In this document: in pieces, positions 8,486 through 51,481 of the stretch | How positions within the stretch are numbered: position 1 is the first letter of the stretch | How the letters are laid out: each line of letters begins with the position of its first letter | Assembly (NCBI GenBank): GCA_913057645.1 | Contig: CAJXOU010000001.1 | Coordinates: 1 to 64,000, forward strand | DNA: 64,000 bases | Origin: an uncultured Rhodobiaceae bacterium | Lineage (GTDB): Bacteria; Pseudomonadota; Alphaproteobacteria; Parvibaculales; Parvibaculaceae | Reading direction: 5' to 3' | Made by a program: the position numbers and the translations under genes | The notes under the pieces: generated by a model | The model's database searches: none | Told to the model about the DNA's origin: nothing | Seen by the model: only the letters and a program-made list of their open reading frames with translations

Positions 8486-9331
8486 ATGATGCCGTTTCAC
8501 CGTCTTTTCCTTTTCGCCTTTCTGGTTTCCGCCTTTCCCGTTCTTCCGTCCGCCGCTTCGCCGGTCCTGGAACTCGCGCAAAGCGTGCCCGTGTGGGAAC
8601 CCGGCGATCCGGTGCCGGATGCCGGACCGGACACCGGCATGACGGATGCGACGTTGGATTACGAAGCCGAAGACGCGGAGATGGCGCCTGCACCGCTGCC
8701 CAAAGGGCCGCCGCTGCGGCAGAGCGCGGCCAGCGAGAGCGAAGCGAGCGTGCCGGGCGAGAGCGGCGAAGGCTCGGGGAGCACGGCGAGCATCGCGGAA
8801 GATCCGACGGATTTCCTCTGTGGACGCGCACCGGCGGGCAAGACGGCTCCCGTGCCTCAGCCTTTCGACCGGTGGCTCGTGCGCGTCTGTTCGCCGAAGG
8901 GGCAGGCGCTGGTGCCGGTACAGGGGGAAGCCTGGGTGGCGCATGGCTCGGCGGACCCCGTGTCGATCCTCGCGATGCCGCCGGGCGCGGTGCCGCCGCC
9001 GGCCGACGCCACCTTCGATGCGCGCTACGACATCCGCTTCGAAACACTGGTGGGCGGACAAACGGCCGAGAAGCGGCTTGCCCGCGCGAGCGCGCTTATC
9101 GAGGCCGCCGCCGGCGAAAACGAGAAGACGCCGCCTCACGACGAGGTGTGGCAGCTCGATGCGGTGAGCAATGTGGGCGGCGCGCATTACAACATCTTCT
9201 TCTATGTCGCGGGCGCCAGCGCGGAGGGCGCGCGGCCGCACCACCTGATCGCCTGTCTCGACCAGTGCCGGCAGGCGCTCTATCTCGACGTGCTGACGGG
9301 AGCGGAGGCGGCGGAAGTGACCGGGCGGTGA
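8486..9331 (+). CDS. secreted hypothetical protein
   Basis: A 281-residue protein with a signal peptide (MMPFHRLFLFAFLVSAF..., about 23-26 residues). It then has an acidic low-complexity stretch rich in Ser, Glu and Gly (about 35-115) and a folded domain (about 120-281) with four cysteines (FLCG, RVCS, IACLDQC). Two adjacent ATG codons (8486, 8489) are possible starts. It lies 64 bases after another small secreted Cys-containing protein, so the two may be co-transcribed. No known domain recognised; a periplasmic or surface location is inferred. Confidence 0.65.
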   Translation: MMPFHRLFLFAFLVSAFPVLPSAASPVLELAQSVPVWEPGDPVPDAGPDTGMTDATLDYEAEDAEMAPAPLPKGPPLRQSAASESEASVPGESGEGSGSTASIAEDPTDFLCGRAPAGKTAPVPQPFDRWLVRVCSPKGQALVPVQGEAWVAHGSADPVSILAMPPGAVPPPADATFDARYDIRFETLVGGQTAEKRLARASALIEAAAGENEKTPPHDEVWQLDAVSNVGGAHYNIFFYVAGASAEGARPHHLIACLDQCRQALYLDVLTGAEAAEVTGR

Positions 9332-9431
9332 CGGGCGGCGGTGTGAATTGACATAATTCGTGCCAATAAATAGAAGGCACGGGATGAGGCGCCCCCTCAC
9401 CCTTCCCACCTGCGCGGCTTCGCCGCTCCGG

Positions 9432-9490
9432 CGGGCGTTCGAGGACGAAACGTCCTCCGGACGTTTCCATTGTCCTCTCACCCCTCTCCC
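9432..9490. repeat. covarying hairpin repeat, copy 1 (diverged)
   Basis: GGGCGTTCGAGG leads into GAAACGTCC (9447-9455), loop TCC, GGACGTTTC (9459-9467), then CCTCTCACCCC. The flanks match the other copies near 45640, 49990 and 56740, but the stem sequence differs and stays fully paired. Confidence 0.65.
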
Positions 9491-9527
9491 CAAAGGGGCG
9501 AGGGAGAGATAGCGAAAGCGGAGAACG

Positions 9528-10634
9528 ATGACCAAGGGATACGAGTTCTACGGCGCGGAAGTGAGCTACTTCTCCGGCAAGGTGCGCGCCTATCTGCGCT
9601 ACAAGCGGATTCCCTTTTCCGAAATCACGCCATCGCGCGAGATCTACCGCACCATCATCATGGCGCGGGTCGGCTGGCCGGTGATCCCCGTCGTCGTGAC
9701 GCCGGAGGACGAGACGTGGCAGGACTCCTCCGAGATCATCGACAATTTCGAGGCCCGGTTTCCGGAAGGCGACATCTATCCGGAAGGCGCGAAACAGAAG
9801 CTCGCGGCGCTGCTGATCGAGGCCTATGCGGACGAGTGGCTGAAAATTCCGGCGATGCACTACCGCTGGACGAAGAACCGCGACTGGGCGATTTCGGAGT
9901 TCGGGCGGCTGTCGCGGCCGGACCTCGACGAGGCGGGCCAGCGCGCGACGGGCGAGGAAACGGCGAAGCCCTTCGCCGGCGCCCTGCCCTTTCTCGGCGT
10001 GACGCCGGAGACGGGACCGGCCATCGAGAAGAGCTATGAGGGATTGCTCGGCGAACTCGACGCACATTTCGCGAAACACGACTATCTCTTCGGCACGCGG
10101 CCCTCGATCGGCGATTTCGGCCTTTACGGGCCGCTCTACGCGCATCAGTACCGCGACCCGGCCTCCGGCGAGATCATGAAGAATCTCGCGCCCCATGTCG
10201 TCAAATGGGTGCTGCGGATGACGAAGCCGCCGCAGCCGAAGGGCGGCGCGTTTCTCGCAAACGATGAGGTGCCGGAGACGCTGATGCCCGTCCTTGCACG
10301 GATGATGCGCGAATATCTGCCGGTGCTCATCAAAACGGCAGATGCCCTGAAGTGCCATGTGGAGGCGCATCCCGAGCTCATCGCGGGCAAGGAACCGCTG
10401 CCGCGCGCGCTGGGGCAACATGAATTCACGCTGGAAGGCACGACCGGCACGCGCGCGATCTTCGCCTTCGATCTCTGGATGCTGCAACGGCCGCTCGATT
10501 TTCTGGCGACGTTGCAGGGAGAACAACGCGAGGCGGCGCTTTCCATGCTAAGACAGGCAGGCGGGGAGCGGCTGATCGATTTCCCGCCTTACCCGCGCCT
10601 GACACGGCGCCAGTTCCGTCTGGTTGTTGAATGA
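9528..10634 (+). CDS. glutathione S-transferase family protein
   Basis: A 368-residue cytoplasmic protein, longer than a typical 200-230-residue GST. An N-terminal thioredoxin-like domain (about 1-85: YEFYGAEVSYFSGKVRAY, then VIPVVVTP and the DSSEIIDNFE block that resembles the glutathione-binding Glu/Asp-Ser site) is followed by a helical C-terminal domain with GTRPSIGDFGLYGPL near 200. About 130 extra residues follow, with no recognised motif. The stop codon overlaps the ATG of the next gene (ATGA), linking it to an EncFtn-like ferritin. Its reaction is unknown; a detoxification or redox role is inferred. Confidence 0.8.
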   Translation: MTKGYEFYGAEVSYFSGKVRAYLRYKRIPFSEITPSREIYRTIIMARVGWPVIPVVVTPEDETWQDSSEIIDNFEARFPEGDIYPEGAKQKLAALLIEAYADEWLKIPAMHYRWTKNRDWAISEFGRLSRPDLDEAGQRATGEETAKPFAGALPFLGVTPETGPAIEKSYEGLLGELDAHFAKHDYLFGTRPSIGDFGLYGPLYAHQYRDPASGEIMKNLAPHVVKWVLRMTKPPQPKGGAFLANDEVPETLMPVLARMMREYLPVLIKTADALKCHVEAHPELIAGKEPLPRALGQHEFTLEGTTGTRAIFAFDLWMLQRPLDFLATLQGEQREAALSMLRQAGGERLIDFPPYPRLTRRQFRLVVE

Positions 10635-11029
10635 GCGATAGCGGTTTCCTCTCTCGCCTTTTCGGCCGGCGGCGCGCCGCGCCATCCAGACCCGAAACGG
10701 CGGTGACAGACGAACCGCCGGAATTTCCGAAGCCCACAGGAGCCCCCATGTCCAGCGAAGGCCTGCACGAACAAAACCTCTCGGCGGAAGCCCTCAACCT
10801 GCACCGCGCCATCGTGTCGCTGATGGAGGAGCTGGAAGCGGTCGACTGGTACAACCAGCGCGCGGAAGCCTGCACCGATCCGGAACTCACGAAAATCCTC
10901 GAGCATAATCGCGACGAGGAAATCGAGCATGCGGTGATGGTGCTCGAATGGCTGCGGCGCAACAATCCGCGCTTCGACAAGGAGATGAAGGAGCGGCTGT
11001 TCAAGGACGGGTCTATCGGGAAGGACTGA
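10631..11029 (+). CDS. encapsulin-associated ferritin-like (EncFtn-type) protein, orphan
   Basis: The core (LHRAIVSLMEELEAVDWY, then TDPELTKILEHNRDEEIEHA and LEWLRRNN) matches the Rhodospirillum rubrum encapsulated ferritin EncFtn, a short two-helix ferroxidase that oxidises Fe(II). Counting from the internal ATG at 10748, the ligands correspond to E28, E58 and H61, with W34-Y35 also kept. Two starts are possible. The ATG at 10631 overlaps the GST stop codon (ATGA) and adds 39 residues (GFLSRLFGRRR then a Pro-rich linker). The ATG at 10748 follows ACAGGAG at good spacing and gives a 93-residue EncFtn-sized product. The protein ends soon after the core, without the C-terminal cargo peptide known in EncFtn, and no encapsulin shell gene is in the window. 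Confidence 0.8.
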   Translation: MSDSGFLSRLFGRRRAAPSRPETAVTDEPPEFPKPTGAPMSSEGLHEQNLSAEALNLHRAIVSLMEELEAVDWYNQRAEACTDPELTKILEHNRDEEIEHAVMVLEWLRRNNPRFDKEMKERLFKDGSIGKD

Positions 11030-11045
11030 GGGTTTACACATTTCA

Positions 11046-11140
11046 TGTCACCCCGGCGAAAGCCGGGGTCCATGAGCGGAACGTCTCAAGATAACATTCG
11101 CGGACAGGCCCATGGATCCCGGCTTTCGCCGGGATGACAG
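11046..11140. repeat. inverted pair of REP-like palindromes
   Basis: CCCCGGCGAAAGCCGGGG at about 11051-11068 and GATCCCGGCTTTCGCCGGGA at about 11115-11134 are two copies of the same palindrome in opposite orientation, about 46 bases apart. They form a BIME-like doublet between convergent genes. A similar pair is at 51341-51481. Confidence 0.75.
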
Positions 11141-11172
11141 TTTTGGGTTTGGTACCTCAGACCCAAATTCAG

Positions 11173-11961
11173 CTACCGCACCTGACCGCCATCGACGACG
11201 AGGACCTCGCCCGTGATGAAGCTCGCGCGGGGGCTGGCGAGGAAGGCGGCGGCGTCGGCGATTTCCTCGACCGTGCCGAAGCGGCGGAGCGCGACTTCGC
11301 GCCTGATCCAGCGCTCCCAGGCTTCCGGGCGCTCCTTCGTGTTCCTGTCCCAGACGCCGCCCTCGAAAAGAATGTTGCCGGGCGCGATGGCGTTGACGCG
11401 CAGACCCTCCTTGCCGGTGAATTTCGCGAGCTGGCGCGTGAAGTGATTGATGCCGGCTTTGGAGGCCGCATAGGTGAGCGAGGTGCCCATGGCGTCGACG
11501 CCCGCAATGGATGAAATCAGGATGAGGCTTGCGTGCTCGCGCTCCTCGCGCGGGCGCTTGAGAATGCGGCGCGCAGCCTCGCGGGCGAGCCAGACGGAGC
11601 CGAAGAGGTTCTGCTTCATGTCGGCGTCCCAGTCCTCGTCCGAAACATCGAAGCCTAAGGGCGCGCGCGACAGGCCGACATTCGCGATGGCGCAGTGAAG
11701 GGGGCCGAGCTTCTCCTCCGCCGCGTCGAGCGCGGCGGCGATCTCGCCGGACGCCGTCATGTCGCCCGCGACGGTGAAAAGATTCTCCGGCTTCACGCCT
11801 TCGGCAATCAGCGCCTCGTGCGCCTCGTCGAGCGATTTCTCGCCGCGCGCGGCCATGCCGACCTTCGCGCCCTCGGCGGCGAAGGTCCGCGCCATGCCGA
11901 AGCCGATGCCGCGGCTCGCGCCCGCGATGAAGACATGCTTGCCGGTCAGTTCGAGATTCAT
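11173..11961 (-). CDS. short-chain dehydrogenase/reductase
   Basis: A 262-residue classical SDR of the 3-ketoacyl reductase type. It has GASRGIG (14-20) for the cofactor, ANVG at 93-96, catalytic Ser in LISSIAG (150/151), Y164 and K168 in YAASK, and a C-terminal GEVLVVDGG block. R18 and R39 near the cofactor loop suggest NADP(H), which is inference. It is convergent with the EncFtn-like gene and divergent from the membrane gene at 12086. Substrate unknown. Confidence 0.9.
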   Translation of the reverse strand: MNLELTGKHVFIAGASRGIGFGMARTFAAEGAKVGMAARGEKSLDEAHEALIAEGVKPENLFTVAGDMTASGEIAAALDAAEEKLGPLHCAIANVGLSRAPLGFDVSDEDWDADMKQNLFGSVWLAREAARRILKRPREEREHASLILISSIAGVDAMGTSLTYAASKAGINHFTRQLAKFTGKEGLRVNAIAPGNILFEGGVWDRNTKERPEAWERWIRREVALRRFGTVEEIADAAAFLASPRASFITGEVLVVDGGQVR

Positions 11962-12085
11962 GAGACCCCTCCGATGTTCCGTCTGCCGAGAGACTAACGG
12001 CGGGGGCTCGCCTTCGCCAGCGAAACGGGGTTATGCTCGCGGCGAGGGTCGCGCGGGGAGGCGCGACCGGGATGGGGGAAAACAC

Positions 12086-12529
12086 ATGAACAAGAACATG
12101 CAGATGCTGCTCGCCGGACACGGCGCGCTTGTATTCCTTGCGGGCATGCTGGCGGGGTTTCCCTTCGCCTCCGTGCTCGTCGCCTCGCTCGATCCGGGCG
12201 CGGCGACGATGTGGCCGGGCGACGTGCGCGCGTGGCGGATGGCGCATATGGAAGGCGCGCTGAACGGGATGCTGATGATCGCGGTGGCGGGTGCGATGGC
12301 GCATGCGGCGATGGGCGCGACGATGGCACGCGTGATCGTCTGGGGACTGATCGTGACGGGCTGGGGGAACATCATCGCCTCCGTCGTCTCGGCGATGACG
12401 GGCGGACGCGGCCTCGGCTTCACGGGCGCCGACTGGAATACCGTCACCTTCACGCTCTTCATGGCGGCGATCCTCGGCGTCATCGCGGCGATGATCGCGG
12501 TGGCGTGGGCGAGCTTCAAAAGCCGCTAG
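12086..12529 (+). CDS. styrene oxide isomerase-like membrane protein
   Basis: A 147-residue protein with four predicted transmembrane helices (about 8-35, 56-75, 81-103, 118-143). It resembles StyC/styrene oxide isomerase, a haem-b membrane enzyme that rearranges epoxides to aldehydes. The shared pattern is GHG near the N-terminus (11-13), W-x3-H-x5-LNGM (H54, N60), GWGN at 92-95 and RGLGFTG. By recalled StyC numbering, H54 and N60 match the haem ligand H58 and N64, while the position of catalytic Tyr103 appears to be S99. It could therefore bind haem yet have changed chemistry. The start follows ATGGGGGAAAACAC. No styrene monooxygenase is nearby. Confidence 0.6.
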   Translation: MNKNMQMLLAGHGALVFLAGMLAGFPFASVLVASLDPGAATMWPGDVRAWRMAHMEGALNGMLMIAVAGAMAHAAMGATMARVIVWGLIVTGWGNIIASVVSAMTGGRGLGFTGADWNTVTFTLFMAAILGVIAAMIAVAWASFKSR

Positions 12530-51340: not shown

Positions 51341-51481
51341 TGTCATCCCGGCGAAAGCCGGGACCCACTCGCATTTCAACTTGCCGCAGCTGTTGAAGGA
51401 GGCACTTCCCTTTCCGCGACGGTAGCACATCGCCGCGCTTGCTGAGGGAACCAATGGGTCCCGGCCTTCGCCGGGATGACA
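51341..51481. repeat. inverted pair of REP-like palindromes
   Basis: TGTCATCCCGGCGAAAGCCG begins at 51341 and GGTCCCGGCCTTCGCCGGGA lies at about 51458-51477, in opposite orientation, ending in TGACAT. Same family and layout as 11046-11140, with a longer spacer. The rest of the gap to 51600 shows nothing else except the ribosome binding site of the next gene. Confidence 0.75.

What the first reader, a model, noticed from the sequence alone, without database searches (positions are those of the whole stretch)
10631..11029. Orphan EncFtn-like ferritin coupled to a GST gene, with no encapsulin and no cargo peptide
The protein core has the EncFtn ferroxidase pattern (E28, W34, Y35, E58, H61 counted from 10748). 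Known EncFtn proteins are encapsulin cargo, with a C-terminal targeting peptide and an adjacent shell gene. Here the C-terminus stops after the core, the neighbour is a GST gene joined by ATGA, and no shell gene is in the window. The longer form adds an N-terminal amphipathic arginine segment and Pro-rich linker. It could be a free-standing EncFtn or use an N-terminal targeting signal.
Basis: partly seen in the sequence, partly recalled or inferred. Interest (0 to 1): 0.75.

Follow-up and report, generated by a model that had tools for sequence, protein, structure and literature searches.

The report
Shell-less ferritin with optional N-terminal tether
A Parvibaculum gene encodes a small iron-oxidising ferritin of the kind first known from inside protein nanocompartments, but this genus has no compartment gene; such free ferritins turn out to be common, and the unusual part is a conserved extra N-terminal segment that seems to be added to only some copies through a second start codon.

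Summary
ORF 10631-11029 carries an intact EncFtn core (PF22277, E=5e-40; R. rubrum 5da5, E=1e-29; every ferroxidase, entry and exit residue present). It has no targeting peptide, and no PF04454 shell gene exists in this genome or in 27 Parvibaculum genomes. The premise "EncFtn = encapsulin cargo" does not hold. In a sample of 385 Alphaproteobacteria, 50 of 63 EncFtn genomes have no shell, and so do 37 of 40 other EncFtn genomes tested, mostly Beta/Gammaproteobacteria. This is the published short, targeting-peptide-free class (s-FLP; 3k6c). GST adjacency is real but not obligatory: GST is in 27/27 Parvibaculum genomes, EncFtn in 21. The unusual part is the N-terminal extension. Its first 13 codons are under purifying selection (pN/pS 0.23), with a conserved F[FL]SR[LIF]F[GR]R motif and a variable Pro-rich linker. 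The internal ATG (10748) keeps a Shine-Dalgarno in all 12 long-form genomes, always through the rare codon GGA, so two products (132 and 93 aa) are likely. Seven of 19 GST-linked genes lack or have broken the extension, so it is dispensable. Its role as a tether (membrane or nucleic acid) is inferred; the amphipathic moment is not above shuffles.

The parts
10631..11029 (+). EncFtn-like gene, long reading (132 aa), start overlapping the GST stop by ATGA
   Evidence: PF22277 E=5.1e-40; 5da5 E=1.1e-29; AF2 core helices 52-80, 84-111, 113-122; Foldseek 5da5 TMt 0.91, rmsd 1.1
10748..11029 (+). Short reading (93 aa, MSSEGLHE...GSIGKD), the EncFtn decamer-forming unit
   Evidence: Internal ATG with AGGAG Shine-Dalgarno; the only usable start in 7 of 19 GST-linked Parvibaculum copies
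10769..11008 (+). PF22277 EncFtn-like core with all ferroxidase, entry and exit residues
10631..10669 (+). Codons 1-13: conserved MSDSGFLSRLFGR block (F[FL]SR[LIF]F[GR]R in relatives), possible tether
   Evidence: pN/pS 0.23 in frame, 0.94 and 4.34 in the other frames; changes by codon position 11/3/27, p=2e-5
10670..10747 (+). Pro-rich linker, weakly constrained (pN/pS 0.63); most relatives keep EFPKP
10738..10742 (+). AGGAG Shine-Dalgarno for the internal ATG 10748, inside the linker codons ACA GGA GCC; GGA codon invariant in 12/12 long-form genomes
10631..10634 (+). ATGA stop/start overlap between GST and the long EncFtn reading (no strong Shine-Dalgarno)
9528..10634 (+). GST-family gene (368 aa, GST_N_3 + GST_C_2), upstream neighbour; genus core gene
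11173..11961 (-). Convergent short-chain dehydrogenase (SDR), conserved downstream neighbour in most relatives
11046..11139 (.). Long imperfect inverted repeat between the convergent genes (32-nt arms, 91% complementary); not in Rfam

Best explanation
This is a free-standing, shell-less EncFtn of the short (s-FLP) class. The 93-aa unit should assemble on Fe(II) into the EncFtn ring decamer, with di-iron ferroxidase sites at the subunit interface, and oxidise Fe(II) in the cytosol as an iron/oxidative-stress protein beside the genome's two ordinary ferritin-family proteins. Two products are most likely made from one gene. The main, short product starts at ATG 10748 from a strong Shine-Dalgarno. 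A minor, long product comes from translational coupling at the ATGA overlap with the GST gene and adds a conserved FLSRLFGRRR segment on a flexible Pro-rich linker. The long subunits would let a mixed decamer be tethered, either to the membrane inner surface (the block matches the FLxRLFG pattern of the MinD membrane anchor, as I recall it) or to another polyanion. Shown here: family, active-site residues, absence of the PF04454 shell, coding selection on the extension, conserved internal ribosome-binding site. Inferred: decamer and activity (from close homologues), production of both isoforms (about 0.6 likely), tethering (about 0.3 for membrane). The confidence given is for the free-standing short EncFtn itself.
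For: Core family and fold; residues. No PF04454 shell in 27/27 Parvibaculum genomes, with the control search ringing in 3 reference genomes. In 385 Alphaproteobacteria, 63 have a strong EncFtn and 13 a shell; all 13 shell genomes are among the 63. C-terminal tails are bimodal: 37-48 aa with a targeting motif in 12/13 shell genomes, 7-21 aa with the motif in 0/48 shell-less ones (Fisher p=7e-12). 37 of 40 further EncFtn genomes, mostly Beta/Gamma, have no shell. Extension under purifying selection. Internal Shine-Dalgarno -6.6 to -9.6 kcal/mol against -2.7 to -4.2 at the long start of the GST-linked genes (random median -3.2); GGA at that site in 12/12 although GGA is 4 of 58 Gly codons in the local genes. 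Comparable N-terminal aromatic/Arg blocks with their own strong Shine-Dalgarno occur in other lineages: L079 Parvularcula, L139, L027. In Beta/Gammaproteobacteria shell-less EncFtn often sits in the rubrerythrin - Fe-S oxidoreductase - DUF3501 cluster, a setting for peroxide/iron chemistry (the three-gene cluster is described in PMC5114695).
Against: No expression or protein data. AlphaFold leaves residues 1-40 unstructured (pLDDT 41-60) and the hydrophobic moment is not above shuffles, so membrane binding is weakly supported. The extension is deleted or frame-broken in 7 of 19 GST-linked copies and needs 4 state changes on the GST tree, so it is dispensable. Published work reports that EncFtn without a shell oxidises iron but does not store it as mineral (PMC11202242), so the use of a shell-less form in vivo is unproven. 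No Irr-type iron box was found upstream in Parvibaculum.
Confidence: 0.82

Rival explanations
1. Only the 93-aa form is made in practice; the upstream open frame is a leftover of overlapping gene ends and the reader's 'extension' is an annotation artefact.
For: Weak Shine-Dalgarno at the long start in the GST-linked genes; extension absent or broken in 7 of 19; homologues start at MSSE/MANE.
Against: Codons 2-13 evolve as coding in this frame only (pN/pS 0.23 against 0.94 and 4.34; 27 of 41 changes at third positions, p=2e-5); linker length differs between species only by whole codons (37-43 aa); similar blocks with strong Shine-Dalgarno in three other loci.
Confidence: 0.15
2. The protein is encapsulin cargo packaged by an unrecognised shell, using the N-terminal extension or the last ten residues as signal.
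For: PMC11202242 leaves open whether s-FLPs can be encapsulated; family 2 encapsulins use N-terminal signals (PMC8346489).
Against: No PF04454 hit in 27 genomes; shells found elsewhere in the class score 222-335 bits and lie next to long-tailed EncFtn; SrpI-like PF19307 0/27, but that control search was silent, so it is weak; extension absent in many relatives.
Confidence: 0.04
3. The basic N-terminal segment binds DNA or RNA rather than membrane, as the charged tails of some Dps proteins do.
For: Net charge about +3 in the first 18 residues, Arg cluster.
Against: The most conserved positions are the hydrophobic pairs F[FL]..[LIF]F, not only the arginines; no direct test.
Confidence: 0.25
4. 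The GST gene is a functional partner (for example thiol chemistry that releases iron), so gst-encFtn is a two-gene system.
For: Adjacency in 19 of 21 Parvibaculum genomes with EncFtn and in another family (f121: L135, L140, L141; GST 56-59% identical).
Against: GST is present in all 27 Parvibaculum genomes, including 6 without EncFtn and 2 with EncFtn elsewhere.
Confidence: 0.15

Closest known systems
s-FLP class of EncFtn (Nitrosomonas europaea NE0167, PDB 3k6c); 'non-encapsulated FLP' of Giessen & Silver 2017 as cited in PMC11202242
   Same: Short core, same fold (Foldseek 3k6c TMt 0.90), no C-terminal targeting peptide
   Different: The window gene has a conserved N-terminal extension with a second start; 3k6c does not
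Rhodospirillum rubrum EncFtn (Rru_A0973, PDB 5da5)
   Same: About 60% identity over the core, identical ferroxidase, entry and exit residues
   Different: Rru has a long C-terminal tail with the targeting peptide and an encapsulin shell; neither is present here
MinD-type C-terminal membrane-targeting sequence (recalled from knowledge, not searched)
   Same: Pattern FLxRLFG
   Different: Here at the N-terminus, shorter hydrophobic stretch, no test of membrane binding; hydrophobic moment lower
Rubrerythrin-DUF3501-RFO cluster (PMC5114695)
   Same: Houses the shell-less EncFtn of many Beta/Gammaproteobacteria
   Different: Not the context in Parvibaculum, where the neighbour is GST

Membership tests
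EncFtn-like (PF22277) | Profile match over the curated cut-off | tested here: met
   135.6 bits against 27; TIGR04535 124.1 against 125, just under
EncFtn-like (PF22277) | Ferroxidase residues E32/Y39/E62/H65, entry E31/E34, exit H57/E61/E64 (Rru numbering) | tested here: met
   residues named in PMC5012862
EncFtn-like (PF22277) | Two long helices plus a short third helix per subunit | tested here: met
   AF2 helices 52-80, 84-111, 113-122; Foldseek 5da5 TMt 0.91
EncFtn-like (PF22277) | Iron-dependent decamer and Fe(II) oxidation | not testable with these tools
   Inferred from homologues (PMC5012862)
Encapsulin cargo (FLP-TP) | C-terminal targeting peptide | tested here: not met
   Ends 7 aa after the core
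Encapsulin cargo (FLP-TP) | Shell gene in the genome | tested here: not met
   PF04454 0/27 genus genomes
s-FLP (short EncFtn) | Core without long tail or targeting peptide | tested here: met
   class defined in PMC11202242
Membrane-tethered protein | Amphipathic helix above composition expectation | tested here: not met
   Shuffle p 0.18-0.82; AF2 gives no helix
Membrane-tethered protein | Binds membrane | not testable with these tools
   -

The most novel reading that the evidence does not exclude
A shell-less EncFtn ring made from one gene as two isoforms by dual translation starts, in which the long isoform anchors the ferroxidase to the inner membrane (or another surface), an alternative to encapsulation for placing iron oxidation in the cell.
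Probability: 0.27. Interest if true: 0.6.

Novelty: new variant of a known kind. Interest (0 to 1): 0.42.

Why it matters
The 2024 review of encapsulated ferritins leaves open whether short EncFtns are encapsulated. The genome counts here say that most alphaproteobacterial EncFtns have no shell to enter, so 'encapsulated ferritin' is a misnomer for much of the family. That makes a shell-independent job for the ring directly testable. The dual-start extension offers a simple comparison of tethered and free ferroxidase in one organism.

Tried and rejected
Irr/ICE iron box upstream: found only in L140 and L141 (another family), not in Parvibaculum. Hydrophobic-moment test for an amphipathic helix: negative. 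More relatives of L139 with the extension: its order holds one genome only. Family 2 shell (PF19307): 0/27, but the control search also found nothing, so uninformative. Rfam in 9000-12500: none. Plasmid collection: two partial matches in other genera. An apparent 70-locus neighbour family was the reverse strand of the core itself and was discarded. GST as obligatory partner: rejected by its presence without EncFtn. The EncFtn tree has few columns and low support, so the single or multiple origin of the extension is unresolved.

Full report
Observation. The ORF 10631-11029 (+, 132 aa) is present and overlaps the stop of a 368-aa GST-family gene (9528-10634) by ATGA. Residues 47-126 match Pfam EncFtn-like PF22277 with E=5.1e-40. 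The NCBI model for encapsulin-associated ferritin scores 124.1, just under its cut-off of 125. The best solved relatives are R. rubrum EncFtn 5da5 (E=1.1e-29), H. ochraceum EncFtn and N. europaea NE0167 3k6c. The AlphaFold model has the EncFtn core at high confidence (helices 52-80, 84-111, 113-122) and an unstructured N-terminus; Foldseek ranks EncFtn chains first (5da5 TMt 0.91).

Organism and shell. Near-identical loci come from Parvibaculum. EncFtn occurs in 21 of 27 Parvibaculum genomes. The classical shell family PF04454 occurs in none of the 27, while its control search found three reference genomes. The genome is 99.99% complete by the tool's estimate. SrpI-like shells were also not found, but that search lacked a working control. 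Each genus genome also carries ordinary ferritin-family genes, two in this one.

Is an orphan EncFtn unusual? No. In a sample of 385 alphaproteobacterial genomes, 63 have a strong EncFtn match and 13 have a shell. All 13 shell genomes are among the 63. The C-terminal tails separate without overlap: 37-48 aa in shell genomes (targeting motif in 12 of 13) against 7-21 aa in 48 shell-less genomes (motif in none; Fisher p=7e-12; the 21-aa case is next to a contig end; the two Parvibaculum genomes of the sample bring the shell-less total to 50). Among 40 further EncFtn genomes, mostly Beta- and Gammaproteobacteria, 37 have no shell; completeness is not reported for these. The literature already names this type: 's-FLP', without a targeting peptide, example 3k6c, 'initially classified as non-encapsulated', with the possibility of encapsulation left open (PMC11202242). 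The finding therefore belongs to a known kind, and the genome counts argue that this kind is mainly shell-free.

Gene neighbours. EncFtn sits beside GST in 19 of 21 Parvibaculum genomes (one of these with GST split over a contig edge) and in a second alphaproteobacterial family (L135, L140, L141; GST 56-59% identical). But the GST gene is in all 27 Parvibaculum genomes and in 35 of 40 of the order, including genomes without EncFtn, and two Parvibaculum species keep EncFtn at another locus. In many Beta/Gammaproteobacteria the shell-less EncFtn lies between a CCG-domain Fe-S oxidoreductase and DUF3501 (15 loci with both), 8 of these with rubrerythrin nearby. The rubrerythrin-DUF3501-oxidoreductase cluster is described in PMC5114695 as an oxidative-stress module. 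This places shell-less EncFtn in peroxide/iron chemistry by association.

The N-terminal extension. Twelve of the 19 GST-linked Parvibaculum genes have it (37-43 aa, always whole codons); in six it is absent and in G006 a one-base deletion breaks its frame. The first 13 codons have pN/pS 0.23 in this frame against 0.94 and 4.34 in the other two; the linker has 0.63 and the core 0.17. On the GST tree, changes in codons 2-13 fall 11/3/27 on positions 1/2/3 (p=2e-5), and presence/absence needs 4 changes. The block therefore behaves as translated and constrained sequence, yet it is dispensable. L079 (Parvularcula), L139 and L027 (a Parvibaculum with EncFtn at another locus) carry comparable aromatic/Arg blocks plus Pro-rich linkers with strong ribosome-binding sites of their own.

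Two starts. The long start in the GST-linked genes has no strong Shine-Dalgarno (-2.7 to -4.2 kcal/mol, like random sequence). The internal ATG has AGGAG (-6.6 to -9.6) in all 12 long-form genomes. At this site glycine is always GGA, although GGA is only 4 of 58 glycine codons in the neighbouring genes and the flanking residues change (TGAP, KGAP, RGAS, EGDA). The simplest reading is selection for both starts: a main short product and a long product by translational coupling.

Mechanism and limits. Shown: family, active-site residues, no PF04454 shell, coding selection on the extension, conserved internal ribosome-binding site. Inferred from homologues: iron-dependent decamer and ferroxidase activity. 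Inferred, weaker: both isoforms are made, and the long one tethers the ring. Membrane tethering rests on a remembered MinD-like pattern; the hydrophobic moment is not above shuffles and the model shows no helix, so binding to nucleic acid or to a protein partner is about as likely.

Verdict. The orphan EncFtn is ordinary for its class. The conserved, dual-start N-terminal extension is a new variant worth a direct test.

Noticed in passing
window 11046-11139: 32-nt arms, 91% complementary, 30 nt apart, between the convergent EncFtn and SDR genes; CCGGCGAAAGCCGG or its reverse complement recurs at 51348 and 55559, so it looks like a dispersed intergenic palindromic repeat; not in Rfam.
   Followed up: partly
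L140 and L141, about 100 nt upstream of the EncFtn core: Long near-perfect inverted repeat containing TTAGAnnnnnTCTAA, resembling an Irr-type iron control element, in front of EncFtn in another alphaproteobacterial family with the same GST-EncFtn order.
   Followed up: partly
L051, L054, L056, L065, L072, L087, L100, L119: Shell-less EncFtn embedded in the rubrerythrin - Fe-S oxidoreductase - DUF3501 cluster; the published three-gene cluster (PMC5114695) shows a 'hypothetical protein' that may be this EncFtn.
   Followed up: partly
L091 (Sulfuricella sp. T08, shell at G445:C35): A genome with a short-tailed EncFtn and a PF04454 shell not shown to be linked to it; a useful natural test of whether s-FLPs are ever packaged.
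   Followed up: no
window 9528-10634: The GST is closer to the GST of family f121 (56-59%) than to that of a sister genus in its own family (51-54%), hinting at transfer of the gst-encFtn pair.
   Followed up: no
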